Shown here: positions 1 to 19,600 of the stretch, piece after piece
Numbering within the stretch: position 1 is the stretch's first letter
Layout of the letters: each line of letters starts with the position of its first letter
DNA from: a virus
Length of the DNA stretch: 30,100 bases
Strand: one strand, 5' to 3'
IMG/VR virus record: IMGVR_UViG_3300020442_004149
Span: 1-30,100 of that record
The notes under the pieces: model-generated
Databases searched by the model: none
Told to the model about the DNA's origin: nothing
The model's input: only the letters and a program-made list of their open reading frames with translations
Made by a program: the position numbers and the translations under genes

Positions 1-2402
1 TTAGAACGAGGAAGACTACTTACATTGATAAGTGCTACACGCATAGCAATACTGCTTATGAATCGTTCCATACCACTACACATTTCTAATGGCCAATGAC
101 GATCCTCGTAAGTTATCTTTGAGTAAATGTGTTTTCCATCCATTTCAAGATTCATACCAAAATCAACAATTTGAGAAAGTATATTATTAACTTCACTTTC
201 AATACTAGGAATAGTTTTAGAAATTAACTCGTATGAAATGCCATCACGTTTAACAGCATCAAGATAAAGTTCATATCCTCTTTTCTTTCTTTCATATCCC
301 TTTGCTTCTTCTATTGATGCAAGCACATCTTCGTGTTCTTTTTCAACAATTTTAACTTCACCGAAAAGAGTTTGAAGTTTTTCAGTTTCTTTATTTGCGA
401 TTACATTTACACCCGTAAGATTATTTTGCAAAGCATCTACTTCAATTTGTAATGATTTATTAAATTCAATAATATCTTTACATTCATAATATTCTTTTAT
501 ACTCTTTTCATTTAAAACTATATCTTTATCAAGTGCATCTATCATACTAGATAATGCTAAAATCTTTGAATCAGTTTGATTTATTTCATAAGTAAGTTGA
601 GTTATTTCTGATTTTAAATTGTTAAACAACTCATATTCAGATTCAACATTTTTATGTATATCTAATTTCTGTTGTAAATTATTTTTTTGCTTTACTAATT
701 CATCTGCGTCTGCTTTATCTGAATCAAGTTCTTTTTTAGTTTTTTCTGCACTTTCAATTAAATTTTTTGAATTGTTAACACAATATTTACAATTAGGATC
801 ATAATCGTGATTATCATAGTGCTTTAATTTATCAAGTTTTGCATTAACCGATGTTCTTAATACAGCAAGATCTTTATCTACTAAATTTATATTTTCACGA
901 ATTTGCAGAACTTCTACATATGTTTTATCCACACCTTCAAGTTCATTCATCTTTTTAAATTTTATAGATTTTTCCGTTGATAACTTTTTTTTCTTATCAG
1001 ACTCGGATGAACGATTTTCCTTTGCAACTTCAATTCGTTCTTTTAAATTCTTTTTATTAAATTCTAGTTTATCGATGTCAACAGATGATTCATCAAAAGA
1101 ACAATTTTTGAATTGTGAGTTTTTATCGGCAAGTTCTTTATTAAGTTTTTTTTGTTTTAGCAAAGCAACATTAGTTTTACTATCCTGTTCATTATATTGA
1201 TTTTTAATATTTTCTAGTTTTTCACCTACTTCATTTAAAGTTTCATCAAAATCTTCACGATTAAATCTTTTAAGAAGTGCATTTATTTCTTTTATATCTT
1301 CTGATGCCGTTGAGTGAAGTTGATCAAACATATCAATCCCCATAAATTGAGCAAGCAAATCTTTTCGTTCACTTTGACTTTTATCAATAAAAATTGCATT
1401 ATTATTTTGCAAACTTAGTGTTGTTAAAACAAAGTCATCGTAAGAACCAACATGATCACGAATAATAGCATTTGTTCCGGCTCTTTGTTCTCCGTTTAAG
1501 GATATTGTTTGTCCTTCATCATCGTGCTTCCAAAAATCTACTGCTACTGTTACATCTCCATTTTTTTTCGTATTTGCAGTTCTTTCTATGAAATAATTTA
1601 CACCTGAGATTTCAAAATTTAGTTTACAATAAAACGAGTCTGTTTGTGTATTGAGAACATGGGCAGCTTTGAATGCACGATCACATTTGTCAAACAAACA
1701 AAAACTCAATGCACTCATTACACTACTTTTACCACTTGCATTTGAAGCAAACAAACCCATTACACTTTTCATATTTGAAAAATCTATTACATTTCCTTCT
1801 CCGTAACTGAACATATTGCCGAATTCAAACTTCTTTGGTTTCCAAATACAATTTCTTAAAACTTCTTTTACTACTAACTTTTCATTTATTTCTTTGTTAA
1901 TATCAAGAGCAGTTTTTATTTGTTCGTCATCTACTACAAAGTTTCTACGAAGATAATCTTCTATTAATTCATTTTGAACTTGAACTGTAGTAATATCTCC
2001 AAAATCAAATTTATTATCACGATCATACTTTTTTGCTTCTGAAATAGCATCACATCTTGTTACATTTAAATCACTAATATTAGTTTGTTTTCTGATTTCG
2101 GCAATTATTTCTTTAGTTTCAGTTGCCGTTGTATTGTAAACTTTTACTCGCAATCTTGCTTTTTTGGGCAATGCACTTAGATCACTAACACATTTTCCAT
2201 CCTGTACTACAATTGTGTAGTATCCATAATCGTTATGAACTTCGTGGTGAGTGTGACTTTGTTTATTTAAATCCCATAAAACATAACCATGACCAATTGG
2301 TTTTTCACCGTGATTTTGTTGTATCATACTTCCAGAATAAACTACAACTGGTTTATTCTTATTGTGTCGTTTTACTTTTATATATGTTTCTTTATCTTCC
2401 AT
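1..2402 (-). CDS. gp46: Mre11 capping/Rad50-binding region fused to Rad50 (gp46-like) ATPase, 3' end cut by the window
   Basis: The reading frame is open from an ATG at 2402 to the window edge, about 800 codons. Residues 18-33 read PVVVYSGSMIQQNHGE and residues 57-66 NDYGYYTIVV; these match the start of the Mre11 capping domain, which normally follows the last nuclease motif. Residues 130-175 look like the Mre11 helix that binds Rad50. Rad50 begins near residue 190 (NMFSYGEGNVIDF), with a Walker A at 216-227 (GLFASNASGKSS), a Q-loop near 331 (SLQNNN), long coiled coils, a CxxC zinc hook near 538 (CKYC) and an ABC signature near 775 (CSGMERF). The Walker B and D-loop lie outside the window. 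Known role of the family: the gp46/gp47 exonuclease resects DNA ends for phage recombination and recombination-dependent replication. The start overlaps the end of the preceding glycosyltransferase-like gene by 11 bases and has no strong ribosome binding site, so translational coupling is likely. Confidence 0.9.
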   Translation of the reverse strand, partial: MEDKETYIKVKRHNKNKPVVVYSGSMIQQNHGEKPIGHGYVLWDLNKQSHTHHEVHNDYGYYTIVVQDGKCVSDLSALPKKARLRVKVYNTTATETKEIIAEIRKQTNISDLNVTRCDAISEAKKYDRDNKFDFGDITTVQVQNELIEDYLRRNFVVDDEQIKTALDINKEINEKLVVKEVLRNCIWKPKKFEFGNMFSYGEGNVIDFSNMKSVMGLFASNASGKSSVMSALSFCLFDKCDRAFKAAHVLNTQTDSFYCKLNFEISGVNYFIERTANTKKNGDVTVAVDFWKHDDEGQTISLNGEQRAGTNAIIRDHVGSYDDFVLTTLSLQNNNAIFIDKSQSERKDLLAQFMGIDMFDQLHSTASEDIKEINALLKRFNREDFDETLNEVGEKLENIKNQYNEQDSKTNVALLKQKKLNKELADKNSQFKNCSFDESSVDIDKLEFNKKNLKERIEVAKENRSSESDKKKKLSTEKSIKFKKMNELEGVDKTYVEVLQIRENINLVDKDLAVLRTSVNAKLDKLKHYDNHDYDPNCKYCVNNSKNLIESAEKTKKELDSDKADADELVKQKNNLQQKLDIHKNVESEYELFNNLKSEITQLTYEINQTDSKILALSSMIDALDKDIVLNEKSIKEYYECKDIIEFNKSLQIEVDALQNNLTGVNVIANKETEKLQTLFGEVKIVEKEHEDVLASIEEAKGYERKKRGYELYLDAVKRDGISYELISKTIPSIESEVNNILSQIVDFGMNLEMDGKHIYSKITYEDRHWPLEMCSGMERFISSIAMRVALINVSSLPRS

Positions 2403-3318
2403 TTGTAACAATTTTTAAAATTTCAGCACCCACGTCGGCATCACTTAAAAAGGGACTCAGATGAACATGATCTTGATTAGGAAAATACATATTAGGTCCT
2501 AAAAATGGAATTCTACTTTCGAGATTACTTAAATCACCTCCATTTTGTTGCCAAACCACTCCTTTAGGACCAAACATCTGATGAATATAGTCAGTTGTAA
2601 TTATAGTTTTTATTCCAAGTGCCGATGCCATATTTGTGAGACATCCCTCAGAACCAATTACAAAATCACAATTTTTTATTAAACTTGCAGTAAATGTAAA
2701 CTTACTTGTTGAATTGATAGTAGGATATCTTTTAGAAATTGTATCTTCAAGACCCAAAGCAAATAAAATTACTCTTGGGTGATGTTCCATGCAATTAATT
2801 ATATCAAAGGTATTTCTTGTTTTTTGACCATAACCAAAACCAGTTTCTCCTCCAATAGCATTATTGTATTCGTCTTCAGTAAATAAAAAACTTTTTTTGT
2901 GCCAATCCATTTGGTATCCAACTTTTATTATATCAGATTTCCAATCTCCAATATTTTTCAATTCAGACATACTTTTTTCAATAGAATAATCAAGAACTTG
3001 GTTAGTAAAAATTTCAAAGGTATCGTCGAAGTTTTTAATTTCGCACATTTTTTGAAATTGAGAAGTTATTGATTCATACGGATTTAGTGTGAAATTTTCA
3101 GGAATTAAATTATATATAATGTCATAGTTTTTTTCACTATCCATAAAAAAAACTTTATCTATATAAGGATTACAATCTAATAGTTCAAGTGGTTGTAAAT
3201 AATTTATATCAAAATGAATTTCACATATTTTGTTTTGCTTTATTTTTTTAGCAACACTACTTGCAAGAAGAATGTCACCAATGTGAATGTTTCTACACTT
3301 TACAAGTATTTTATTCAT
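2392..3318 (-). CDS. GT9/heptosyltransferase-like glycosyltransferase inserted inside the Mre11 gene
   Basis: A protein of about 308 residues. The N-terminal stretch NIHIGDILLASSVAKKIK matches the first Rossmann motif of the GT9 (ADP-heptose:LPS heptosyltransferase) family. The C-terminal part has FVIGSEGCLTNMASALG followed by FGPKG, resembling the GT9 nucleotide-sugar-binding region. Length is slightly short for the family. ATG 3318 was chosen over the in-frame TTG 3321 just before it; a GGAG lies 8 bases upstream of the ATG. The gene overlaps the Mre11 nuclease-core gene by 8 bases and the next gene by 11 bases, so it fills the break in Mre11 exactly and no intron or IS ends remain. It may glycosylate phage or host molecules, but substrate and role are unknown. 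A catalytically dead GT-fold protein is also possible. Confidence 0.75.
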   Translation of the reverse strand: MNKILVKCRNIHIGDILLASSVAKKIKQNKICEIHFDINYLQPLELLDCNPYIDKVFFMDSEKNYDIIYNLIPENFTLNPYESITSQFQKMCEIKNFDDTFEIFTNQVLDYSIEKSMSELKNIGDWKSDIIKVGYQMDWHKKSFLFTEDEYNNAIGGETGFGYGQKTRNTFDIINCMEHHPRVILFALGLEDTISKRYPTINSTSKFTFTASLIKNCDFVIGSEGCLTNMASALGIKTIITTDYIHQMFGPKGVVWQQNGGDLSNLESRIPFLGPNMYFPNQDHVHLSPFLSDADVGAEILKIVTNGR

Positions 3319-4015
3319 CAATCACACTCCAACCATCAAGTTTGTATTTATCTATATTGCTTTCTGCTATAAATTTATGCTCAGTTTGATATTCTTGTAA
3401 AACTTGATATTTGTGTATATCACCAAGCATAACAATATCATATCCATCAAACATACTTAAATCAATATCACCACCCATAACAACATAACCAACATCAGTA
3501 CGACTTCGTTTTACTGCTCCGTGATAAACTGCTATTTTTGTTTTTATAGAAGTGTCATTGATGTCAAGACCACGAACATAATTACTAGAATCATCCAATA
3601 TACTAAATACACTTACTACAACATCTCCTATTTTATATAATCCACTGTTTTTAAGATAAAACAAATTTTCATCATCCATCATATCCATTATAGGTGACAA
3701 TACGTCAAGACGATCAGGATTGTTTAAATTACAATCGTGATTTCCTGCAATTACAAGTGTAGGGTGTAACTTAGAACACTCACGAAGAAACGATGAAATT
3801 TGATGAATAAGTTCAGGACTCATTTCTGTTTTTGCATGAGCAATATCACCACCTATAAAAATAATAGCATTATCATAATTATCTTCTTTAACTTGATTAT
3901 AGAAGTTTTCAAAAACCTGAGAATATTCTGTGTGACGTTTTACATTTCGGATATGAATATCTGCGAGATGATATACTTTTTCAACATTTCTTAAATCTGA
4001 TTTTAACTCATGCAT
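3311..4015 (-). CDS. gp47: Mre11/SbcD-like (gp47) nuclease core, lacking its capping domain
   Basis: A 234-residue calcineurin-type metallophosphoesterase. All expected metal-binding motifs are present in order: D19-x-H21 (LADIHIRN), D57 (GGDIAH), N92-H93-D94 (AGNHD), H165 (YHG) and D199/H201 (LGDIHKYQ). In Mre11 and T4 gp47 (about 340 residues) the last motif is followed at once by the PGS/YSGS capping segment. Here it is followed by an unrelated tail of about 27 residues (Y209 to E234) and a stop. The missing part is encoded at the start of the Rad50-like gene about 0.9 kb downstream. Expected role: the nuclease subunit of the Mre11-Rad50 end-processing complex. Its start overlaps the primase gene by 13 bases. 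The catalytic core looks intact, so this is not an obvious pseudogene. Confidence 0.88.
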   Translation of the reverse strand: MHELKSDLRNVEKVYHLADIHIRNVKRHTEYSQVFENFYNQVKEDNYDNAIIFIGGDIAHAKTEMSPELIHQISSFLRECSKLHPTLVIAGNHDCNLNNPDRLDVLSPIMDMMDDENLFYLKNSGLYKIGDVVVSVFSILDDSSNYVRGLDINDTSIKTKIAVYHGAVKRSRTDVGYVVMGGDIDLSMFDGYDIVMLGDIHKYQVLQEYQTEHKFIAESNIDKYKLDGWSVIDE

Positions 4016-4947
4016 AACTTTTGTTTCATTAACTCACCAAAATCAAGTAGTTTGGTATTTTTTATTTTAGTAATAACTCGTTGGAATCCTAAATCAGAAG
4101 CATCTTCATTTTCCATTCTGACTAATCTCACTTTAATATTTTCTTTCATAAGTGACTCTGACATACTCATAGCATTTTTATATGCGTCATTGTCCAATAC
4201 AATTGTAATTTCTTTTACATCATGCTCTATGAGTTTCAATTTTAACTTGTTTGGAATATTTTTACCAAGCAAAGCAATAGCATTTCTTCTTATTGCCATA
4301 GCATCAAATACACCTTCGCAAAAAATAATTGGTTCTTCGTAGTTTATTTGATTTTCAAAAACAACTACATCTTTACTAACTGGTGGATTTTTATATTTAA
4401 GATACGCAGATCCTGTGTAGTCTCTTGCAAGAAAGTAATTTAGTTTATTATCACAATCATATGATGGAACGATGATACGACCACCATAATCTCCATCTGA
4501 ACAATATCCTATATCGTATCGTTCAATATCGTATGATTGTATATTTCTTTTTTTTAAATAATTTAATGCTTTTGTGTAATCCAATTCACTTCGGTATTCA
4601 CTTAATTTTTTATATTCATAAGGTAAAGAAATAAATTGTTTTTCGGTATCTTCGGTTTTAGTATTCTTGGGTAATTTTACTATTTTTGATAATTCGGTAA
4701 AATAGTTACTTGGAACTTGCAATCGTTTAAACAATGCGTATATACTTCGTCCTTTTGCATTGGTATCAATCCAACTCTGCCATCTTTGTGTAACAAGATT
4801 TACTGCCAACTTGGGTTTTCTATGGTGAGAAAATGGACATATAAACATAACCTCGTCTTTAGAGACGATTTTACCTGCTCCTAATATCTTTTGCAGAAGA
4901 TTTAGAAGTTTTTGTTCGGAAATACCCACTATTTTAAAGAATACCAA
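4003..4947 (-). CDS. DnaG-type DNA primase (T4 gp61-like) with a degraded zinc finger
   Basis: A 314-residue protein, similar in length to T4 gp61 (342). The catalytic toprim domain is clear: IIFCEGVFDA with E211, and IVLDND with D252 and D254. Before it, GGRIIVPSYD (155-164) matches the DnaG RNA-polymerase-basic motif, and YLKYKNPP (182-189) follows. It should make RNA primers for the lagging strand with a replicative helicase not seen in this window. The N-terminal finger keeps CPFSHH (37-42) and KGRSI (65-69), but the second ligand pair, normally Cys/His-x-x-Cys near WxxW, is replaced by WQSWID (56-61). Zinc binding is therefore doubtful. The gene overlaps the RuvC-like gene by 19 bases and the Mre11 core gene by 13 bases, indicating one operon. 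Confidence 0.87.
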   Translation of the reverse strand: MVFFKIVGISEQKLLNLLQKILGAGKIVSKDEVMFICPFSHHRKPKLAVNLVTQRWQSWIDTNAKGRSIYALFKRLQVPSNYFTELSKIVKLPKNTKTEDTEKQFISLPYEYKKLSEYRSELDYTKALNYLKKRNIQSYDIERYDIGYCSDGDYGGRIIVPSYDCDNKLNYFLARDYTGSAYLKYKNPPVSKDVVVFENQINYEEPIIFCEGVFDAMAIRRNAIALLGKNIPNKLKLKLIEHDVKEITIVLDNDAYKNAMSMSESLMKENIKVRLVRMENEDASDLGFQRVITKIKNTKLLDFGELMKQKLCMS

Positions 4948-5456
4948 TAATAAAGAGATGCCACGATTGCGTCTAACATATCGTAGTTTCTTTTATCATA
5001 ATTTTTTCTGCTATTATATACAATAAATTTAGATAAATCAATCTTATTTTCAAGTTGTTCACGTACAAAAGTTTTACTATCTACTCCCTTTTCACGACTT
5101 TTACCAAGAACCGATTTTCTTAAGGTTGAAACATTAATGTGATTTATTTCAACTCCGTATAATGCTTCTATTACATAACTTACTACTGCATTACACTTTG
5201 CAAGTTTTATAATTGTTTGCTGACTCGTTCTTCCACCACCATATCCACTGAGAGTATCTTCTACTATTATTATATCGGGACCAAAATCAATTTTGTCTAT
5301 AATCTCAGCAAAATGATGTGCTTTTTGTGTTATATCAGATTTTTTGCTGATATCAACAAAACCAGCTGACAATATTTTAGTCTTAGAACTTGAAAAGCAA
5401 TACCCAATTGTGGTAGAACTAATATCAAGTCCTAAACATACATTTATTTTTTGCAT
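4929..5456 (-). CDS. RuvC-like RNase H-fold nuclease (probable Holliday junction resolvase)
   Basis: A 175-residue protein, the usual RuvC length. LGLDISSTTIG gives D11, IIIVEDTLSG gives E66, and the C-terminal YDMLDAIVASLYYW gives D159 and D162. This is the D-E-D-D pattern of RuvC and its relatives. The likely role is cutting branched DNA made during recombination-dependent replication; a related RNase H-fold function cannot be excluded. It is the first gene of the replication block after the virion cassette and overlaps the primase by 19 bases. The ATG at 5456 lies inside one arm of an 8-bp inverted repeat, with no ribosome binding site upstream. No alternative ATG, GTG or TTG lies between this start and the D11 motif, so the start is well placed despite the lack of a leader. 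Confidence 0.82.
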   Translation of the reverse strand: MQKINVCLGLDISSTTIGYCFSSSKTKILSAGFVDISKKSDITQKAHHFAEIIDKIDFGPDIIIVEDTLSGYGGGRTSQQTIIKLAKCNAVVSYVIEALYGVEINHINVSTLRKSVLGKSREKGVDSKTFVREQLENKIDLSKFIVYNSRKNYDKRNYDMLDAIVASLYYWYSLK

Positions 5457-5473
5457 ACAGAATTATATGCAAA
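5450..5473. repeat. Perfect 8-bp inverted repeat over the RuvC-like start codon
   Basis: TTTGCATA at 5450-5457 and TATGCAAA at 5466-5473 are exact reverse complements, separated by 8 bases. On the minus strand the downstream arm contains the ATG of the RuvC-like gene, and the upstream arm overlaps the TATAAT hexamer. A T-run does not follow the hairpin in the direction of transcription, so it is not a usual terminator. It could be an operator or an RNA hairpin that hides the start codon. Confidence 0.6.
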
Positions 5474-5490
5474 TAAATCTAAAAAATCAA
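5462..5490 (-). promoter_or_regulatory. Possible sigma70-like promoter for the replication block
   Basis: On the minus strand TTGATT (5490-5485) and TATAAT (5467-5462) are separated by 17 bases. The -10 is perfect and the -35 matches TTGACA at four of six positions. Initiation about 7 bases after the -10 would fall at or next to the ATG of the RuvC-like gene, giving a leaderless mRNA. Matches like this occur by chance in AT-rich DNA, so confidence is modest. The location, between late virion genes and replication genes, fits a middle or early promoter. Confidence 0.35.
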
Positions 5491-5494
5491 GGAA

Positions 5495-6097
5495 TTATTT
5501 TTTATATACGTTTTGACCACTGTTCGCACGGAAGTCACCCTTTTGTCCATTACGTTGACCAGAAGAGTTTCTGTTTCCACGTGAGTCGGTAAATGCAATT
5601 GTTTCTCCGTAACGACTTGTATCCATGTTCAAACGATAAAAACTTGCATCCGCCGCACTTGCAGGATCACCAGAACCATAATCAGAATTGTCAATTCCAT
5701 AACTCATTGTTTTACCACACATAAAACCACGATTGTTTGGTTTTCCTGTTCCACCTTTTAGATTTGCATTAGCAGCCGCAGCCGAACGTGCTTGATCTGT
5801 AAACGCATTAGTTCCGTTTCCAGCACCACGACCATATCCACCCAATTTTGAATCCTGTCCAAAGAAACTTACACCAGGACGATTATATTTTTTTAAGTCG
5901 GTTTCAGGAATACCAGGAGATCCTGCTAAATTACCAAGTGCTGGTGCAGCCTGACGATATAATGTACTATTAGTATCAAGACGTCCAAGAAGTCCTCCTG
6001 ATCCTGCTCCTCCGAATGCAGAACCCATTGAAGGACGGGTTTTTCCATTTTTAAATTCTACTGCTGGTGTTGGTGTATATTTTTTTACTGTTGCCAT
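5495..6097 (-). CDS. Gly/Ala/Asn/Ser-rich protein of unknown function, probable virion component
   Basis: A 200-residue protein, not recognised. It begins MATVKKYTPTP and is very rich in Gly, Ala, Asn, Ser and Arg, with segments such as GSAFGGAGSGGLLGRLD and ARSAAAANANLKGGTGK. It has one Cys and neither a hydrophobic segment nor a clear domain, and is probably partly disordered. It is the last gene of the virion cassette, 49 bases after the FG-GAP protein, with an AGGA motif about 7 bases before the ATG, one of the clearer ribosome binding sites here. Its richer GC content and small-residue composition differ from its neighbours. It could be a minor structural, internal or assembly protein; no function is assigned. 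Confidence 0.75.
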   Translation of the reverse strand: MATVKKYTPTPAVEFKNGKTRPSMGSAFGGAGSGGLLGRLDTNSTLYRQAAPALGNLAGSPGIPETDLKKYNRPGVSFFGQDSKLGGYGRGAGNGTNAFTDQARSAAAANANLKGGTGKPNNRGFMCGKTMSYGIDNSDYGSGDPASAADASFYRLNMDTSRYGETIAFTDSRGNRNSSGQRNGQKGDFRANSGQNVYKK

Positions 6098-6146
6098 AAT
6101 AAGTTTCCTAAAGTTTAGTGTTTTCTATAAATATTACTTAAAATTC

Positions 6147-9100
6147 CTAAGAATCATATTTTATTAAAAAATTAATGGGATAGTTTGGTATTATTTTAAC
6201 GGGTCTTCCTAATTTTGCTACCATTGCAAGTTCAGCACCTTGATATAATCCAATTGTAGTTGCGTATGGTGCTAAATAACTACCTTTTCTATCTTTTGCA
6301 GTATTTTCACGAAAATCAAGAAAATCTTGTTTTATTTTTCTTCCATAGTTCTTACCTGTTTTTTCATCAAGATATTTTATTATTTCAAATGAAGTAGAAC
6401 GTGTTGCATTTGAATTTTCATCTATTAAGTTTTTTGTTAACTCGTTTCCACGTCTTCCCACAAAGTATCTAGCAAGTAAATGTGCATCAGTTGAACTGAC
6501 AATACCATCCCCATCAATATCTAATCCGTCTGAACCAAGTTGTTTTAGGTTGTCTAAATTACCTATTATTTTTTGATATTCACTTTCTTTGATATCGAAA
6601 TTAGAATTTGTGGAAAATAATGAACTTATTAACAAAACATCTTCTGATTCGGTCATAATAATGTCATCATTCGGATTGTTTGTATTTTGACCCTCTTGTA
6701 GTTTTATTGCACCAGGAACATCTCCACCTGATGGAATTTTAAGTTTCTGACCCACATATAAACTTAAATCACTTCTTAAATTATTTTCTTTTCTAAGTAC
6801 ATCGGTAGTTACACCTGTTACAAGTGATATATGAACCATAGACTCTACTCTTTTTACTATATGTCTTATTTTATTTCTTATCAAAACTAACATTCCAACT
6901 TTAAATGTTCTTTCTGTGACTTTATTTCCAGATGAGTCTTTTATGTCTGAAATATCTACTTCGTATTGTCTTGCTATCGTTTGTAGTGTTTCTTTTCCTA
7001 CCGTATATTCATCTTCACTTGCATCTTTTTGTGTAGGATCAACAAGAGAACCCATTATATATTTATAAATGTTAGCAACATCTCTTATATCAAACAAAGA
7101 GTCCTCGTTTACATCAAATGCTATTTTTTCGTAACTAATTGATGTTGGATTCGTACTAACATTAAATTCATATGGTTCAACCCTACATAAAATCTCATTT
7201 TCATAGATAGTATGCGATCCCTCAAACTCTAACTCAAATCCACGTTCACCTGTACCTGAAAATAACTCATCAAATTGCTCAAATACATTAGAAATAACTG
7301 CTATTCCATTTTTGTAAAATACATTTCCTACATATGTTCTTTTATTGTCACGAATAGCAGTTGATTCATATGCAATTACTTTTCCTCCAATATTATAATT
7401 TAAATAGTCTAATTCATTTATAGAGAAGTTTCCAAAACTTGTTGCAACGGTTCCTACATCACTAAATAAGTAGATTTCATCTTCTTGCATAGTATATAAT
7501 CCAGATACAGGAAACTTTCCCTCAACAGGACAACCAGAGAACATAAAATTTGAACTTAAAGCAACTGATGTTCCTGATTGTTTTCTTATGCTATAACTAT
7601 TCTTATAACTTTTAATAGAGTTTCTAATTACAGGATTATCGTTTATTATAGAATAATAATAAACCGAACCTTCCACAGAATTTCTTTTTGCGTAATAAGC
7701 AAAATCAATTTCATTTATGCTATTTTCCGAATCAATCAACGATTCTAAATTGTTTTGATCAAGACTTATATAGAATTCAACAAAAATCATATCGTTTTCA
7801 TAAATAACATTTGTTTTGTCACGGAATATTCCTTTATTTAGAAATCCAATTTCACGAATATATCCACTTGCGTTTTTATCAATAAAATCTGCATATATTT
7901 CAAAATCTTTTAAGTAATCAAGTTCAAGAATTAAATTTGTAATGTTGATTTTCAGTTTACAATCAATTGGATTTCCTCCCAATAATTCGTAAGTAAAATC
8001 GGTTTTTAAAATTGTATTTGAAATATAAAAGTCTGAATCAGATCCATCTGATCCTTGTGTATAATCAGATACACTTACGTTTTGTAAATCACTGTTTATT
8101 TCTATGCTACTTGTTTCGGTACACGGTGAACCAACTATAAAATTGTCACCTAGAATAGATACATCACTTCCAAATCTAGTGGAAAATAACAATTCGTCTG
8201 TTTCTTCTCCATAAATTTTTTCATTAAAAGTTAATCTTCCATTCTCGATTTTAAAAACATATGCCGATCCAGCCGTAATTTTTATTGGGTCGTTTCTTTG
8301 ATTAAACTCACGATCATTTGGATCACCTATAATGCAATATGATTCATTTGCGTCTAAACTAAACATAAAATTGTTTTGTATATCAAAATTATATTCGTAT
8401 ATAGTTTTAACAATAGCATCACGACTCTGTGTATTATATAAATCGGGACCGATTGAAATTGTTACGACTGATTCATTTCCATGTAACATTCCAAATTTTT
8501 CGAGTCCTAAATAGATTTTGTTTACACCACTTGAAAATTCAGAAAATGGTAATAAAACATTATATGTACTACCACCGAAAACTTTTATAGATTCTACAAA
8601 TGTACCTCCGTGTGTTACTACATTATCTATGTTTTTGTTAAGTGGTTGATTTAATCTATACACAAAACCATCGGAAATATCAGACTCATCAAGTAAAAGA
8701 TTAGTTATTGTAATAGAAACTAATTCTTCTTCATAATCTACATCAAAGGTTGTATCAAAATAAGATGACTCTCTTGTAGGTTCTAAGTTATATTGGAATA
8801 TACCAAGACTACTTATCGTTTGTTCATGAGTATAAGTAAATTCAGTATCATCACTAGCATCCCACGTAAACACGGCACACATCTTATTTTCACGTGAACC
8901 TATAAAAATATTGGTATCTGTTATTTTTACTATTTCTCCAAATCTTTTAAATGATTTTAATTCATCGTTTTTTAATGTAATGACCGAAACTAAATCATAT
9001 GTTGGGTCTCCAATGGCAAACTCAGGTGTTCCCTCGTACTCTCCCTTCGTTGATATGTTCTTATCATCAAAAGTTACGACATCTAGAATTGAGTTATCAA

Positions 9101-10568
9101 TATATGAAATTGGTTCGTCTCTTTCTGATATAACATTTTCTATTTTCCAACGAGTTACATTTCTATTTATTCTATTTACTTCTTCGGTTTCGGTTGGATA
9201 TGTTCCTTTGTGCTTACCCGTTGTTTCATCGTATTCATATTCATCGTAAACATTGGACACACGAATCCAAGGGTGGTTTTCTGTTCTTTTTGTTTTCTTG
9301 AACACATAAACAGAACCATTATTATTATCATGTCCAGGTGATCCAACCAATAAATAATCACGATGTAAAGAACTTGCGAAACCAAATTCTGATCCGGGTT
9401 CACCTTCAAGTATATTTATAAGTCCCCAGTTGTCTATACCCCCTTTATCTTTGTTGTAAACAAAAACATGACCATGTGCGTGGATTTCGTTTGATCCTCT
9501 GATATGTGATTGTGGAGAGCCGACTACGCAATCAAGTCGTGTAATATCAACAGAACTTCCAAACATATCATTTATAGTATAGTTATCATGAACAAGAAGA
9601 TTTCCAAGTTGGTCAGTAAGTATATCATTTCCATCACTACTAATTTCTTGTGAGATTCCGTTTTGGGTAAACGGACAATACAACTCTTTTAATACTGAAA
9701 ATCCACCACTCTCGGTAGAACCTGATTGATTATGTAAAAGTATTTCTGCTTTTCCTGTTTTTATATCAGAGGGTGCATCCTCTGATACTGGACAACCAAC
9801 CAATAAATATTTTTCATAAGCAGATATATTTTTTCCAAAACTTAAATTATTAAAATCAAATGTATTTCCGTCACCAATCTCTCTTGAGATTTCACGTGAG
9901 TTTGAAGATATACCCACAGAATCACTTGAACTTAAAGAAGAATCACTTATAACTAAATTGGTTGCACCATCGTCAATAATTTTAACAGAACCAAGATCGG
10001 AACTTTTATCTTTTATAGTAAACGAATTTGGTGATACTTTATCTCCCATTTTATTTTTTGAAAAATCTAAAACCCATGCCGAGTCACCAAGTTTTCTTAT
10101 TTCTTGTTTTAAGTTTTCACGTGAGTTTATTGCGTCCAAGTGACTTACATCACTTCCATACACACCAGTTTCAGAACCAAATATCATCAGTGGGTTTATT
10201 ATATCATTCTCTCCCTCAGGAGTTCCGTAGTTATTATAAAACAAATGACTTATAGATTTATGAATGGTTCTACAATATGTTCCGTCCTTATTTAAAAGTT
10301 CTTCGTCTTCATTGAAGTGTGGATGTCCACGTGGAAAAAAAGTACCTTCGGTTTTTTTTGCGAATCTAATTGTGACGGCTGGATCAGACTCAGATTGTTC
10401 AAGTGAAATAATATTATTTATGTCAGAAAACAATGGTATCTTTGTTCCACCATCTACTTCTTGTTCAAGAATAAGTTCGTTCGTAGACTCTAATGATGAA
10501 TATTTCCACTTTCGTTTGGCACGAAATTTCCTAACATTCTTATCAGAAAGTTTTATATTCTTTATCAT
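6147..10568 (-). CDS. FG-GAP beta-propeller virion protein with LysM pair and dockerin-like motifs
   Basis: A 1473-residue protein. Seven FG-GAP-like units of the form FG-x-S-V-x(5-8)-L-V-G-S/C-P start near residues 243, 337, 395, 543, 733, 798 and 997, as in a seven-bladed integrin-type propeller. The gaps after the fourth and sixth units hold extra beta-rich inserts sharing an ITNL(L/I)L core. Near 1155-1175 is a dockerin-like loop (DVNEDSLFDIRDV). Two LysM-like segments follow at about 1187-1277 (YTVGKETLQTIARQY, then VGQKLKIP), and a second dockerin-like loop lies near 1350 (DIDGDGIVSSTDAHLLARY). The C-terminus (TTIGLYQGAELAMVAKLGRP) resembles that of the gene before it. It is likely an exposed tail or baseplate protein contacting host surface glycans or peptidoglycan; the binding target is inferred. 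No purine-rich ribosome binding site precedes its ATG. Confidence 0.8.
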   Translation of the reverse strand: MIKNIKLSDKNVRKFRAKRKWKYSSLESTNELILEQEVDGGTKIPLFSDINNIISLEQSESDPAVTIRFAKKTEGTFFPRGHPHFNEDEELLNKDGTYCRTIHKSISHLFYNNYGTPEGENDIINPLMIFGSETGVYGSDVSHLDAINSRENLKQEIRKLGDSAWVLDFSKNKMGDKVSPNSFTIKDKSSDLGSVKIIDDGATNLVISDSSLSSSDSVGISSNSREISREIGDGNTFDFNNLSFGKNISAYEKYLLVGCPVSEDAPSDIKTGKAEILLHNQSGSTESGGFSVLKELYCPFTQNGISQEISSDGNDILTDQLGNLLVHDNYTINDMFGSSVDITRLDCVVGSPQSHIRGSNEIHAHGHVFVYNKDKGGIDNWGLINILEGEPGSEFGFASSLHRDYLLVGSPGHDNNNGSVYVFKKTKRTENHPWIRVSNVYDEYEYDETTGKHKGTYPTETEEVNRINRNVTRWKIENVISERDEPISYIDNSILDVVTFDDKNISTKGEYEGTPEFAIGDPTYDLVSVITLKNDELKSFKRFGEIVKITDTNIFIGSRENKMCAVFTWDASDDTEFTYTHEQTISSLGIFQYNLEPTRESSYFDTTFDVDYEEELVSITITNLLLDESDISDGFVYRLNQPLNKNIDNVVTHGGTFVESIKVFGGSTYNVLLPFSEFSSGVNKIYLGLEKFGMLHGNESVVTISIGPDLYNTQSRDAIVKTIYEYNFDIQNNFMFSLDANESYCIIGDPNDREFNQRNDPIKITAGSAYVFKIENGRLTFNEKIYGEETDELLFSTRFGSDVSILGDNFIVGSPCTETSSIEINSDLQNVSVSDYTQGSDGSDSDFYISNTILKTDFTYELLGGNPIDCKLKINITNLILELDYLKDFEIYADFIDKNASGYIREIGFLNKGIFRDKTNVIYENDMIFVEFYISLDQNNLESLIDSENSINEIDFAYYAKRNSVEGSVYYYSIINDNPVIRNSIKSYKNSYSIRKQSGTSVALSSNFMFSGCPVEGKFPVSGLYTMQEDEIYLFSDVGTVATSFGNFSINELDYLNYNIGGKVIAYESTAIRDNKRTYVGNVFYKNGIAVISNVFEQFDELFSGTGERGFELEFEGSHTIYENEILCRVEPYEFNVSTNPTSISYEKIAFDVNEDSLFDIRDVANIYKYIMGSLVDPTQKDASEDEYTVGKETLQTIARQYEVDISDIKDSSGNKVTERTFKVGMLVLIRNKIRHIVKRVESMVHISLVTGVTTDVLRKENNLRSDLSLYVGQKLKIPSGGDVPGAIKLQEGQNTNNPNDDIIMTESEDVLLISSLFSTNSNFDIKESEYQKIIGNLDNLKQLGSDGLDIDGDGIVSSTDAHLLARYFVGRRGNELTKNLIDENSNATRSTSFEIIKYLDEKTGKNYGRKIKQDFLDFRENTAKDRKGSYLAPYATTIGLYQGAELAMVAKLGRPVKIIPNYPINFLIKYDS

Positions 10569-12743: not shown

Positions 12744-13697
12744 TTATGTTGTTATTATTCTTCCTTTTATTTTTCTAAATTTTCCACTAGCAACTTTTCT
12801 TATTCCGTCGTTACTTCCACCACTTACAACAAATTTTTGTTCTTCTTGTTGTTCGGAGTTTAGCATATCCATTGCTTGTTTTTCAGTAAAACCCATATTC
12901 ATTTTGTCTATTATGTTATTCGCATAATTATCAAATGCTTCAACATATTTGTCATCTTGTAAATAATAATAATCAATTCCACCATTTACTCTAAGAAAGT
13001 CTTGTTTAGTAATGGGTTGTCTTTTGGATTCCTCGATATATGAACTTTTTTGTATAGTTCGTCCTTCGTGATAAAAATAGGAAACCTCTGAAATGACCTG
13101 CTCGTTCAATGATACATTTCCATAATCAAGTATGTCGGAATAAAACATAACATTATCTATCATACCACAAAATCTTCCTATTTCAATATTATTAAATGTA
13201 ACATAGGGTCGTGTAAATCCTGTATCGTGTGAACCAACATATACATTATCTACAAACAACCTTGATATACCTGATGGATAGAAGTTTACGACTACACAAT
13301 ACCATGTTTCCTTTTCAAGATTAAAAAAGAAACTTGAATCTTCTTCGTTTTCAGGTGTATTCCAATTTAAACCCAATTCAAGTTCTTCTCCATTTGCATT
13401 GATTACAACACCTGTTTTATTATTTGTATCGGTTGACCTATTTAACATAATGCCCGAAGATGGGGCACTTTCTTGGTCAAGATAAATCCAAAATGCCATA
13501 CACGCAGAATTGGTATAAACATCATTCTGTTGAATTACTTTAATATACTCATGTGTATTTGTGGCATCTTCACTTACATTATTTTTTAACTTTACTATAT
13601 TTCTATACTCACGATCAGAACCACCTGTAAGAAGGTCTCCACCATATATAACTCCATAATTTGGAGTTTCTACCGAATTTATTATTTTTGTTGCCAT
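12744..13697 (-). CDS. LamG/concanavalin A-like domain virion protein
   Basis: A 317-residue protein. Residues of about 65-200 have the LamG-like jelly-roll pattern: AFWIYLD, then WYCVVVNFYPSGISRLFVDN, then IEIGRFCGMIDNVMFYSDIL. Such domains bind carbohydrates or act as structural sandwiches. The last 70 residues are unrelated, with a helical segment (YANNIIDKMNMGFTEKQAMD) and a basic end (RKIKGRIITT). The ATG follows the stop codon of the giant adhesin-like gene directly, so the two are probably co-translated and work in the same tail structure. The target sugar or partner is unknown. Confidence 0.72.
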   Translation of the reverse strand: MATKIINSVETPNYGVIYGGDLLTGGSDREYRNIVKLKNNVSEDATNTHEYIKVIQQNDVYTNSACMAFWIYLDQESAPSSGIMLNRSTDTNNKTGVVINANGEELELGLNWNTPENEEDSSFFFNLEKETWYCVVVNFYPSGISRLFVDNVYVGSHDTGFTRPYVTFNNIEIGRFCGMIDNVMFYSDILDYGNVSLNEQVISEVSYFYHEGRTIQKSSYIEESKRQPITKQDFLRVNGGIDYYYLQDDKYVEAFDNYANNIIDKMNMGFTEKQAMDMLNSEQQEEQKFVVSGGSNDGIRKVASGKFRKIKGRIITT

Positions 13698-16600
13698 TTA
13701 AGTAATCTTTCTGAGTATATTAACACCATAACCGACCGAGTTCTTTAGTTCACACTCATAACAATCTCCATTGGTTCGTAAAAATCTAATTCGTAACGGA
13801 CTTTTAAAGTTCCTAGATAATGAAATTGTCATCCCCCCTTGATTGAAATCCGATGTATTTAATGGACATAAATAGTCTGTTTTCAATTGTTGTTCAGTTG
13901 ATGTATCATCAAAGCAAATCGTTCCATCTTCCGATGATGATATTGTTATACCAAGATTTGTGTAATCCCCAATGTTGTTATCGATTTGTAGTATTGTATT
14001 CATCTCACCACAACAATCGATTGGAGTTGGAGTTTGTGTTGGTGTTTGTGTTGGAGTTGGTGTTTGTGTTGGGGTTTGTGTTGGTGTGGGTGTGGGTGTG
14101 GGTGTTGGTGTAGGAGTCGGTGTTGGTGTGGGAGTTGGTGTCTGTGTAGGTGTCTGTGTTGGAGTTGGTGTAGGAGTTGGTGTTCTTTCTATTACTGAAA
14201 ACGGATATACTGAACCGAATGATGTAAATTTTGGTAGTATAACTTCATAACAAACACCATCTACACTTTCGTATCTTAGCAGAATATCTTCTAGTGGGAT
14301 TGCAGGTAAAGAAAAAGTTAGACCTCCATTTTCAAAATTTGAACTTCCAAATGGACAATTATATGTTACAGGTGTAGTACTTGTACTATTTCTTTTTATT
14401 TCACTATAACAAATTTTTCCTTCAGAAGAGGATACTATTGTAATATACCCACCTTCAAGTAAATTTTCATCTTTTTGTATGTTGAACGAGTTGCTTAAAT
14501 CTTGACAACAATCATATGGAGTTAATGTTTGAGTTGGAGTTGGTGTTGGGGTTGGTGTTGGGGTTTGGGTAGGTGTTGGGGTTTGGGTAGGAGTTGGGGT
14601 TGGGGTTGGGGTGGGTGTAGGTGTGGGTGTGGGTGTCTCGGTTTGAGTTGGTGTGGGTGTCGGTGTATATTCTAATGGTGTTGGTGTACTAAGTACAAAA
14701 GGTGTTGATGTATCAGTTGGTGTTGGGGTTGGAGTTGGTGTTGGAGTTAAGTCCACCGAATCTGTTTCTTCAAATTTGAAATAGAATTCAGGTTGCTTTG
14801 ACAATGATAGCATAGATGGATATTGGGGTGGAGTAAGTTGATTAGAAACAGAGATATTTTCTGTTGGTTTATCGTCTATATACCAAAAAGAATCAACTGG
14901 TGCATCTATGCTTGGAACTCTTTGTCTTACAACACACGGTTTGTAATCCAATCTTCCGTTTTCATCAACTGTATAACTTGGTGTGTTGGTTGAAGTTTTA
15001 GAAAAAATTAAACGTTTACTTCGTCTTCTTACTATTGGTACACCACTATCTATGAATGTTCCTCGTTTTCCTATATCAACCAAATCATAATTTGAAAAAT
15101 CAGTTATTATTTCGTGCAATACATTATTTTTTATATCGTGATTACCCAAATCATAGTCTATATCAAAGTTTGAAATACTAAAGTTAATATCAGTTGGTAG
15201 AGTATATTCGGTTGTATTTTGAAAATCTTCAAATCGTCTAACACCAAATGTAAATTTTGTTTTATACTCAATTTCTTGTATATAATTGGGAAGGTGAATT
15301 TTAGAATTTTGTACTGAAATGGTGTCTGCTACCTCCCACGATTTAGTTGTATAATTTAAATTTCTCCAATTAGCATTTTTGTTTTTATTATTTATAGTAT
15401 TAGTTACCGATATTTTAAGAGGTGGAACAAAGAAATTACTTCTATTGAAGTTATCATTAAATTCAAATTTGTATTTTAAGAAATTGCTTATATCAGAATG
15501 AAATATATTAGGTGTTGAATTAATCTCAATCGGACATATATTTGTTTTGACATTTTCATATGAATTTTTGACATATTTGAATGTAAATATTGATGTTTTG
15601 TGAATAGTATTTGATCCCGAATCTTTAAAATCTTCAAGAAGAAAATCTTCTCCTAAAAATAGATTTTCGTCGTATGACCAAAATATATCAACAGAGTTCA
15701 TGTCAATATTTTTTATTAAATTTTTAATTTGATTTTTATTTTCCTCATTATCTTGAATGTCCGTTAGAATTGTTTCTGTGAAGTATTCACTTTTATTTTT
15801 AATAAGTGGGTGTGGTTTTACACTATTAAATTCATATCCGATTGTATCGGCATATGCGTTTTTTCTAATTCTATATTTGTAAATAGCAATTGGAAGTTGG
15901 GGTCGTTTGAATGCAGTATATGGAAGTTTTTGCGTGTTTGTAGTTTGTAGATTATAAATTGGTTGTCGTTCTCCTACACATCCGTCACATACATTATCAA
16001 CTATATATCCATATTTCAATTCCTCTGTTTCATTTTCACGGGAACTTGCATTTTTCCATGCGAACGAGTTTTCATCACTTTCATCAAAATTTTGAATATT
16101 TGAATTTGTGTTTGAATAACCAACTCGTAAATTGAGTAATCTTTTTTCACAATTTGTTGATGAATTTTCAAGCATCACATAATATGAACCGTCTTCACGT
16201 GGATCACCATTTACTACTTTCCAAGATACTGATAAATTATCATAAAAGATAAACCAACCATTTATATTTTTATATAAAGGGTATTCGTTTAAAATATCAC
16301 TTGTTTTCAAATAAAAACCATCTATGCCGTCATAACGACCTCGTATATTTTTATTTGAAATTGTTATATAAGGTAATATCTTAGATTCATTTAATTTACG
16401 GTTTGTAAGTATACAAAAGGTGTCGGTGTTATTTTCGTGGTACTCTCCATATGCAGGTAAAATTAAATTTAAAGATCTTACACTTAATGTCCATGCCAAA
16501 TTCTTATTACTTATTTGTTGAAACGTGTTAAACAATCGTTTGTTTGGAATTAATACAAAAGAATCACCTGTTGCTACGAAATTTGTTTTTGACTCAATAT

Positions 16601-19600
16601 TAATATCTATGTCGGATTTGTATAGGTCTTCCACTGCAATTGCATCCGACTCGTATATTGATTCGTATATCGGAGCATTTTCAACTGTTGCAAATTGAAA
16701 ATCAAAATTGTTATTACTTTCATTTAAGGAAGAATCAAATGAATCGGTGATATTACTTGAGTTATTTCGTATCCAACTTTTATTTCTTGTTCTGTCTGCA
16801 TTACTAATTATCCACTGCCAACCTTCCTTATATATTATCCAATCACCAATTGGTTTTTGTTTGTAAAATATACCCGACGATGATTCTACTTTTTCGTACT
16901 TTCCATTTACCTTCTCCACATCTTTAGTAAAACCAGATACAATTATGTCACCTTCGGAATTAAAAACATTTGTATTTTTTGGAAAGTAAAAATCTCCACC
17001 CCCACCATTCAGTGTACTAAACTTTGTTGGTCTTTCTTGATTTTTATGTTCGTCGAATATGTACACTAATTTATCGTTTTTAAAATACTCCACTTCTGTC
17101 ATTCCACTTCCAATTGGGTCAATATTTGACAAAATCCATCTATCAAATAAATTACTATAAAAAATATACCACCAAGTATTTTTATTGTTCGTGTATACTG
17201 ATTTTCCGTTGTATAATTCATATCCACGAATATATGTTCCGTTTGCCGAAAACATCTTTCCGTGAAACGAAGAAATACTATAACCCGAATATTCTCGTTC
17301 GTTTAATATCAAGAAAAAGTTTTCAATTCCACGTTGTGTGTAAGTAAAACTATCATTTGCAAGTTCATTAATTTCAATTTTATAGTTTGTATATTCATCG
17401 TTCATATCAAGCATCAATTTACTATCCAACACATCTTCCGAATATATTACTACTTTTTCACTTATTTGACTTTCACTTTTGCTAAATTCACGTATAATAC
17501 CCTGATCAAAAAATAAAGAATGCTTTCCTCGTATTCCAAAATAAACAAAAACATCTTCACGACTTGCAGTTGATTTTAATATTTCATTAAAATCATCGTA
17601 GTTTTTGGGTTGAAATATAAGTTGATCTGATTCAGATTCATTTTCTGACTTGCTCCACCTGCTTTCACAATTATTCAAATGATCCTCACTTTTTCCACTC
17701 ACTCTTTCATTTTTTATTTCGTCAAGATATCCCACAAAATAAAATTTATTATCATACGATGTGCCGGCATCAGTATATGAGTTTACCAACACCTCAAAGA
17801 AACACATCCTCAGTCCATTAGATGTATTTGAAATGTTTTCACTTGCTTCTAATAAAGCATCTTCGTTTATTACTAGGTTTTCGTTTACAAATTCACCTGA
17901 CAAAATCGAATCTACAAGTTCTTGTCCGTTTGTTCCAACCGACAATGGTAAATTATTAGGTAAAATATAATCTCCAATTACATTTTTAGACAATGGAACG
18001 AAACCACTTCCATATTCAACTATTTCAGGTGAATCACTTTTTAGAAAGGGTGCATCAAATCTGTATAATCTTTTTTCAGATAATGTATTCAAAAATTTAT
18101 TACTATATTTTACTTGATGTCCGTTTAGTGTTCCTGTTTCTTCAAGTAATAAAGTAATATCAAGTAAGTCTACATCTGGTATCTGAGTATTAATTTCATC
18201 TAACTGACCCATTTTCCATATAAATGAAATTTCGTTTTTAATATTTATTTGTTTATATTTGTTTAAAAGTTCCTGTGAACAAGCAAGTAACTTTAAATTT
18301 CTAATATGGTTTGTTTTAAGTTTTATTTCCGTTGAAATTTTATAGTCTAGCATAAAAGGTTTTTTGACTATATCTTTTATTTTTATATTATACGATGATG
18401 AATATAATCCAGACGATTTTCGTTTTCCGTCTTCATAAAAAATATCAAAATCAGATTTTCTAATATGTGACAATACTTGTGTGTTTTCATTAATCTGTAT
18501 TATGTTTTTATTTTGAGAAGGTTTTGGTATAAAATCGTAATATGAAAAACTTTTAAATATACCTGTTGTATTTTTATTATTTTGTATCACAGGAACTAAA
18601 TTAGAAGCACGATAACCTAGATTAAAATCAACAATTTTATTAATGCTTAACTCACCACTCGAATTTACTCCGTCTGATGCTATGTATGGGGAGTTACAAT
18701 CATAATAACTTATTTCGTTGAATATTTTACCAAGAACTACTAAGTTTGATACATATCCTGTGAACAATCTTCCTATGAACTTTCCGTCTTGTACATTTAT
18801 ATGTTCAAAAGAACCATCAAATATTTTTTTATTTTCTTTGGTATATTCGTAAAACTTTCCATCTTGGTTTAAGTCTATGTATCTTCCGTAAAATTCACCA
18901 TATATTCTACAATTCAGTATTCCTCGTATGTACCCACCCTCGACTCTGTTAATTTCAGAAGAAAATGTATTAATTTGTAAAATTCTATCATTTTTAATAT
19001 TAGTCGTAACCGTTGCACCATCATCTGCACTTCCGTAAAATGAACTAATCGTAGATGATACTTCCATTGATTGTAGTGGTGTTTTTAAGCAACCACCGTC
19101 AAATTCAGTACACATATTTGAAAATAAAACAGGTAGATTGTTTACATCTGCCTTTGCATTATTTTGCTTTTTTTCTTTTATCCAATAATCTGCTTGATCA
19201 AATATTTCAGGTTCTTTTAAAAACTCAGGATCCTTGTTAATAAGTATCCAACAATCATACGACTTACTGAAAAATATAAACCAACTCTTTGATTTGTTCT
19301 TGAACAGAGGTTTGTTATTTACGTTTTTTGAAGAAAGATATTCACCATTTGCAGAATAAAATCCAATATATTGATCTTGTATTTTTATATTTTTCGTGAA
19401 TCCTGAAATCGTTAAAACAATTGAATTATATACAAAAGAAATATTCCCTATATTTTTATCAGAATTGTACAAGTGTAAATCCTTTTGGATTTTCTCGACT
19501 TTATACTCCTTTCCGTCAATAAAATATGTACCGTTGTTCACGTAAGTACCAAACACACGATCATCAAAATCTAAATCAGGAATTATATTACCAGTAAAAT

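What the first reader, a model, noticed from the sequence alone, without database searches (positions are those of the whole stretch)
1..4015. Mre11 is cut in two by a glycosyltransferase gene, and its second half is fused to Rad50
Seen: the nuclease core (3311-4015) keeps every metal motif up to LGDIHKYQ and then ends. The next motif of Mre11 (VVVYSGSMIQQNHGE) and the capping and Rad50-binding regions start the next recombination ORF (from 2402), which continues into a full Rad50 ATPase without a stop. A GT9-like gene lies exactly in the break. Known: in T4 and relatives gp47 and gp46 are separate whole proteins. Inference: an ancestral fused Mre11-Rad50 gene, or adjacent genes that later fused, was split by a cargo gene at a surface loop between the nuclease and capping domain, yielding a two-chain nuclease that must reassemble. 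I do not know of a described case.
Basis: partly seen in the sequence, partly recalled or inferred. Interest (0 to 1): 0.85.

Follow-up and report, generated by a model that had tools for sequence, protein, structure and literature searches.

The report
Phage Mre11 split by inserted gene
In a family of T4-like marine phages the DNA-repair nuclease Mre11, fused to its motor Rad50 in related phages, is made as two separate chains because a sugar-transferase gene sits inside it; the same spot was broken independently in other phages, once by a selfish homing-endonuclease-like gene, which points to how such breaks arise.

Summary
On the minus strand, three overlapping genes read: Mre11 nuclease core (4015-3311), a GT9-like glycosyltransferase (3318-2392), then the rest of Mre11 fused to Rad50 (2402 to the window edge). 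At least 37 viral contigs from 34 metagenomes have the identical arrangement (GT 50-89% identical). All 30 distinct N chains checked keep every metal motif, and both Mre11 halves are under strong purifying selection (dN/dS about 0.085). Contigs of 95-170 kb hold no intact second Mre11. Misassembly and decay are therefore excluded. About 200 related loci, including Microcystis phage Mel-JY01, encode one uninterrupted Mre11-Rad50 chain, so the unsplit fusion exists. New here: the same hairpin loop is broken in two other groups, a clade with no insert and a 484-kb phage in which a homing-endonuclease-like gene occupies the break. A single origin of all splits is rejected (AU p = 1.7e-5). All three N chains carry a similar extra C-terminal tail. 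Best reading: repeated 'genes-in-pieces' fission at a homing-endonuclease-prone site, with the GT as present occupant, giving a two-chain Mre11 that reassembles without splicing. Reassembly and the endonuclease origin of the GT-clade split are inferred. Known kind (Aeh1 nrdA), new host protein and new occupant.

The parts
3311..4015 (-). Mre11 N chain (234 aa): metallophosphoesterase core with all metal motifs, ending after LGDIHKYQ, plus an extra C-terminal tail of about 27 aa
   Evidence: PHROG 100 E 3.4e-16; AF2 mean pLDDT 85 and Foldseek hits to Mre11 structures, best 3dsd_A E 3.3e-6; dN/dS 0.085
3311..3394 (-). Tail of the N chain (EYQTEHKFIAESNIDKYKLDGWSVIDE and stop), absent from unsplit homologues, conserved in the GT clade
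   Evidence: similar to tails of the two other split groups beyond shuffles
2392..3318 (-). GT9-like glycosyltransferase gene inside the break (308 aa from ATG), overlapping both neighbours
   Evidence: TIGR02201 heptosyltransferase III, best E 9.2e-6, 12 of 14 members, far below the curated cut-off; PDB 3tov GT9 E 0.28; dN/dS 0.175; found only at this site in 37 of 37 loci
3..2402 (-). C chain: extra leader (MEDKETYIKVKRHNKNK), last core strand and capping and Rad50-binding part of Mre11, then Rad50 ATPase; runs off the window
   Evidence: PHROG 100 positions 220-379 E 1.4e-8 and PHROG 77 E 2.3e-31; AAA_23 E 3.2e-12; dN/dS 0.086
4003..4947 (-). DNA primase (Toprim) gene directly upstream, overlapping the N chain; context only
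   Evidence: PHROG 47 E 2.7e-37

Best explanation
These T4-like phages descend from forms with a single-chain Mre11-Rad50 nuclease. The gene was broken at the hairpin between the last metal motif (GDIH) and the next core strand (VVYSGS). I infer that a free-standing homing endonuclease gene made the break, because the flanking sequence is among the most conserved in the gene and because a homing-endonuclease-like gene occupies the identical break in a distant relative. In the window's clade the occupant is now a glycosyltransferase. The three genes are read from one message with overlapping stop and start codons (probable termination-reinitiation). The N chain (nuclease core) and the C chain (last core strand, capping domain, Rad50) then assemble without covalent joining into a working Mre11-Rad50, with Rad50-anchored capping domains receiving a separate nuclease chain. 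Shown: the split, its conservation, the unsplit relatives, selection on both halves, recurrence at the same site. Inferred: reassembly, the endonuclease origin in this clade, replacement by the GT.
For: The same split with a GT in 37 contigs from 34 metagenomes; 30 of 30 distinct N chains with intact metal motifs; dN/dS 0.085 (N), 0.086 (C), 0.175 (GT); one N and one C match and no intact second Mre11 in each of seven GT-clade contigs of 95-170 kb; about 200 unsplit fused loci; LR756508.1 with N chain, then a 305-aa gene matching PHROG 1271 HNH endonuclease (E 3.5e-15) and PF08722 TnsA-like nuclease (E 5.8e-6), then C chain; a second independent split clade without insert, with all splits as one clade rejected, AU p 1.7e-5; model of a fused homologue is Mre11 (3tho_B, E 1.7e-14) with the break in the loop between strands 189-193 and 207-209. 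Precedents in PMC2988022: Aeh1 nrdA/mobE split yet active, T4 60/39 mobA, 43A/43B; free-standing endonuclease genes overlapping the upstream ORF.
Against: No homing endonuclease relative was found in seven GT-clade contigs, so the endonuclease stage is unseen in this lineage. Only one genome shows the endonuclease at the site. The insert-free clade shows a break can exist with no gene in it. No two-chain model or experiment was possible. The N chain alone is modelled with low confidence at residues 201-214.
Confidence: 0.68

Rival explanations
1. The glycosyltransferase gene inserted directly into the fused gene (illegitimate recombination or capture), with no homing endonuclease stage in this clade.
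For: The GT family is found only at this site and no homing endonuclease relative was found in seven GT-clade contigs.
Against: A GT has no known means of targeting; the same hairpin carries a homing-endonuclease-like gene in LR756508.1, and N-chain tails resemble each other across groups.
Confidence: 0.27
2. The tail and leader are two parts of a small domain that was inserted in the hairpin before the break; the break fell inside it and the parts now act as a clip that holds the chains together. (Not exclusive of the best explanation.)
For: L155 is unsplit yet has about 38 extra residues in exactly this hairpin; tails of the three split groups are alike (L166-L071 score 66 vs 28+-5, L166-GT 50 vs 21+-4); a short helix is predicted in the tail.
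Against: Similarity of the L155 insert to tails and leaders is weak (single-test p 0.01-0.5 for tails and 0.006-0.29 for leaders); the GT-L071 tail similarity is weak (23 of 1000 shuffles); L155 could instead be a re-fusion.
Confidence: 0.25
3. The halves are joined after transcription or translation (intron removal or split-intein trans-splicing), so an ordinary single chain is made.
For: Fractured genes with split inteins around an endonuclease gene are known in phage metagenomes (Dassa 2009, known to me only as a citation and from memory).
Against: No Rfam intron in the window region or in five relatives; no intergenic space, since the GT overlaps both halves; tails of about 27-37 aa and leaders of about 9-20 aa are too short for intein halves, and no intein family was hit.
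Confidence: 0.04
4. The N chain is a decaying remnant and Rad50 acts without Mre11, or a host nuclease substitutes.
For: Splitting often precedes loss (general knowledge).
Against: All metal motifs kept in 30 of 30 distinct N chains and dN/dS 0.085, the same as the Rad50-bearing half.
Confidence: 0.03

Closest known systems
Aeromonas phage Aeh1 nrdA split by mobE (genes-in-pieces; Friedrich 2007, described in PMC2988022)
   Same: A phage gene broken at one point by an inserted gene; both halves kept; the review reports a fully functional two-part enzyme.
   Different: The protein is Mre11, already fused to Rad50; the occupant here is a glycosyltransferase, not an endonuclease; the split clade is widespread and the same point is broken in at least one further lineage.
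Phage T4 genes 60/39 (mobA) and split DNA polymerase genes 43A/43B of Aeromonas phage 25 (PMC2988022)
   Same: DNA-metabolism genes of T4-like phages made as two chains by insertion, with occupants that vary between relatives.
   Different: Other proteins; occupants are an endonuclease gene or an untranslated spacer.
T4 gp47/gp46 and bacterial SbcD/SbcC
   Same: Same Mre11 and Rad50 domains and motifs.
   Different: There Mre11 is one whole chain, separate from Rad50; here half of Mre11 is a separate chain and the other half is on Rad50.
Single-chain Mre11-Rad50 of Microcystis phage Mel-JY01 (WWT39521.1, 1066 aa)
   Same: Unsplit homologue with the same domain order.
   Different: No break, no insert, no tail or leader.
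Fractured genes with split inteins and an endonuclease gene between (Dassa 2009, not readable here)
   Same: Two half-genes around a free-standing gene.
   Different: No intein halves here.

Membership tests
Mre11/SbcD nuclease | Phosphoesterase metal motifs I-V | tested here: met
   DIH, GD..H, GNHD, YHG and GDIH in 30 of 30 distinct N chains of the clade; motif V is GDxH and not GHxH, as in the unsplit relatives
Mre11/SbcD nuclease | Mre11 fold with capping and Rad50-binding parts | tested here: met
   Fused homologue L080 1-374 matches Mre11 structures (3tho_B E 1.7e-14); window C chain matches PHROG 100 positions 220-379
Mre11/SbcD nuclease | One continuous polypeptide for the nuclease and capping domains | tested here: not met
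   Two ORFs with a GT gene between
Rad50/SbcC ATPase | Walker A, CxxC hook, signature, Walker B | tested here: met
   All four read in the complete relative L002; the window copy is cut by its edge
Homing-endonuclease genes-in-pieces | Gene uninterrupted in relatives, interrupted at one point here, both halves conserved | tested here: met
Homing-endonuclease genes-in-pieces | Occupant is a homing endonuclease gene | tested here: not met
   Window occupant is a GT; the feature is met only in LR756508.1 (PHROG 1271 E 3.5e-15)
Homing-endonuclease genes-in-pieces | The halves assemble into an active enzyme | not testable with these tools
   Needs biochemistry
Split-intein fractured gene | Intein halves at the break | tested here: not met
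   Only short tails and leaders, no intein profile hit
Group I/II intron | Intron RNA core around the inserted ORF | tested here: not met
   No intron match in Rfam, window and five relatives
GT9 glycosyltransferase | Significant match to a GT9 profile | tested here: inconclusive
   TIGR02201 best E 9.2e-6 in 12 of 14 members but below the curated cut-off; Pfam GT9 not hit

The most novel reading that the evidence does not exclude
Not just tolerated damage: the tail and leader form a shared clip, so that the nuclease chain docks reversibly on the Rad50-anchored capping half and nuclease loading becomes a separate, adjustable step, with the overlapping GT gene setting the chain ratio.
Probability: 0.15. 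Interest if true: 0.8.

Novelty: new variant of a known kind. Interest (0 to 1): 0.62.

Why it matters
It gives a natural two-part Mre11 cut inside its catalytic core, so one can ask how the last core strand and capping domain act on the active site. Unsplit, split-empty, endonuclease-filled and GT-filled versions of one site in related phages make the route from homing insertion to a fixed multi-chain enzyme with replaced cargo directly testable. It also warns that half-length Mre11 genes in phage annotation may be functional.

Tried and rejected
Misassembly: rejected by 37 independent contigs. Intron: no Rfam hit. Split intein: no profile hit, tails too short. Pseudogene: rejected by selection and motifs. 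Intact second Mre11: not found. One ancestral split for all: rejected; for GT clade plus LR756508.1 it is not rejected (p 0.26). DNA-glycosylation role for the GT: no thymidylate-synthase-family gene in seven partial GT contigs, so unsupported but not excluded. Origin of the tail: no Pfam hit, only weak PHROG hits, nothing in phage records or viral contigs. My first idea that the tail is an endonuclease footprint became uncertain when L155 turned up. LR756501.1 was too distant to place in the tree.

Full report
What is there. On the minus strand the window reads primase (4947-4003), a 234-aa Mre11 nuclease core (4015-3311), a glycosyltransferase-like gene (ATG 3318 to stop 2392) and an ORF from ATG 2402 that runs off the window after 800 aa. 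The first Mre11 piece matches PHROG 100 (SbcD) at positions 28-222 and the start of the last ORF matches the same profile at 220-379, so the two pieces tile Mre11 with no gap; the remainder of the last ORF is Rad50/SbcC (PHROG 77, E 2.3e-31; AAA_23, E 3.2e-12). In the closest relative L002 the C chain is complete (866 aa) with Walker A, CxxC hook, signature and Walker B.

It is not an artefact. The arrangement recurs in all 37 viral contigs, from 34 metagenomes, that carry this GT family, and the GT was found nowhere else. N-chain identity to the window runs 68-94% among aligned members and GT identity 50-89%. All 30 distinct N chains keep the metal motifs. Nei-Gojobori dN/dS medians are 0.085 (N), 0.175 (GT) and 0.086 (C). 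Each of seven GT-clade contigs of 95-170 kb has one N and one C match and no intact second Mre11. The GT start overlaps the N stop (8 nt in the window, as in L002) and the GT stop overlaps the C start by 8-14 nt throughout, which leaves no room for an intron and suggests coupled translation; no Rfam intron is present.

The unsplit state exists. About 200 related locus records (116, 84, four more; some contigs fetched more than once) encode one ORF of about 1050-1100 aa containing all of Mre11 followed by Rad50, including Microcystis phage Mel-JY01 (WWT39521.1). In these the hairpin between LGDIHKxQ and GSxIQQNHGE is short and varies in length. The AlphaFold2 model of the fused homologue L080 (residues 1-374, mean pLDDT 84.9) is Mre11 by fold (3tho_B, E 1.7e-14) and places the break in the loop between strands 189-193 and 207-209, so the C chain supplies the last core strand as well as the capping domain. 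The window N chain alone is modelled well up to residue 200 and poorly at 201-214, with a short helix in the tail.

The same hairpin is broken elsewhere. In L071 and L089-L093 the N and C chains are separate ORFs with no gene between. In the 484-kb uncultured phage LR756508.1 the break holds a 305-aa gene that matches an HNH endonuclease family (PHROG 1271, E 3.5e-15) and a TnsA-like nuclease domain (E 5.8e-6), with a NUMOD3-like segment visible by eye, and its start overlaps the N-chain stop. Trees place the insert-free clade within fused relatives; holding all splits as one clade is rejected (AU p 1.7e-5), while grouping the GT clade with LR756508.1 is not rejected (p 0.26). So there were at least two separate fissions at one hairpin. 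The direction fused to split is inferred from the nesting and the number of fused lineages; the trees are not rooted by a usable outgroup.

Extra residues at the break. All split N chains carry a C-terminal tail that the unsplit proteins lack, of the form V.E.EL..YL.SG.W/Y.L. Tails of LR756508.1 and L071 score 66 against 28+-5 for shuffles, LR756508.1 and GT clade 50 against 21+-4, GT clade and L071 31 against 23+-3 (23 of 1000). This comparison was chosen after seeing the tails. One unsplit protein, L155, has about 38 extra residues in the same hairpin, with weak resemblance to tail and leader. The tail may therefore be a mark of the inserting element, or a small domain that was there before the break. 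No homologue of the tail was found in the other collections searched.

Mechanism. By analogy with Aeh1 nrdA, T4 60/39 and phage 25 gene 43 (PMC2988022), I conclude that a free-standing homing endonuclease most likely broke the gene at a conserved site and that in the window's clade the occupant is now the GT; direct GT insertion remains possible. The product is most likely a non-covalent two-chain Mre11 whose second part is anchored on Rad50. That it reassembles is inferred from conservation, not shown.

The glycosyltransferase. It is remotely GT9-like (TIGR02201, best E 9.2e-6 in 12 of 14 members, below cut-off; 3tov E 0.28). No thymidylate-synthase-family gene was found in seven partial GT-clade contigs, so a role in DNA glycosylation has no support here. 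Its target is unknown; host surface sugar is a guess.

Setting. The GT-clade contigs and LR756508.1 all encode a T4 gp23-type capsid protein and the window has baseplate wedge proteins, so these are T4-like myophages. No held paper describes a split Mre11 or a natural phage Mre11-Rad50 fusion; the held library lacks most subscription journals.

Noticed in passing
L166 (LR756508.1) 3527-7752: Homing-endonuclease-like gene inserted in Mre11-Rad50 of a 484-kb uncultured phage, at the same point as the GT of the window.
   Followed up: yes
L071, L089-L093: Second, insert-free split of the same protein, N stop overlapping or close to the C start.
   Followed up: yes
L155 5257-8565: Unsplit Mre11-Rad50 with about 38 extra residues in the hairpin where others are split.
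   Followed up: partly
window 6147-10568 (-): 1473-aa protein with FG-GAP repeats, LysM and dockerin type I domains, an unusual mix for a phage structural or adhesion protein; L155 216-3374 has a similar dockerin-like pattern by eye.
   Followed up: partly
window 13698-24236 (-): 3512-aa ORF with no Pfam match at E 0.01 and two Thr-Pro-rich repeat stretches (tandem repeats near 14021-14184 and 14533-14666), each next to a Cys-Cys module.
   Followed up: no
window 25342-25455: 15-nt tandem repeat encoding SSLES repeats in the ORF 24840-26297.
   Followed up: no
N chains, motif V: The usual GHxH metal motif is GDxH throughout this Mre11 family, split or not.
   Followed up: partly
window 12744-13697 (-): Laminin-G/concanavalin-like lectin domain protein in the tail gene cluster (E 8.7e-9).
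   Followed up: no
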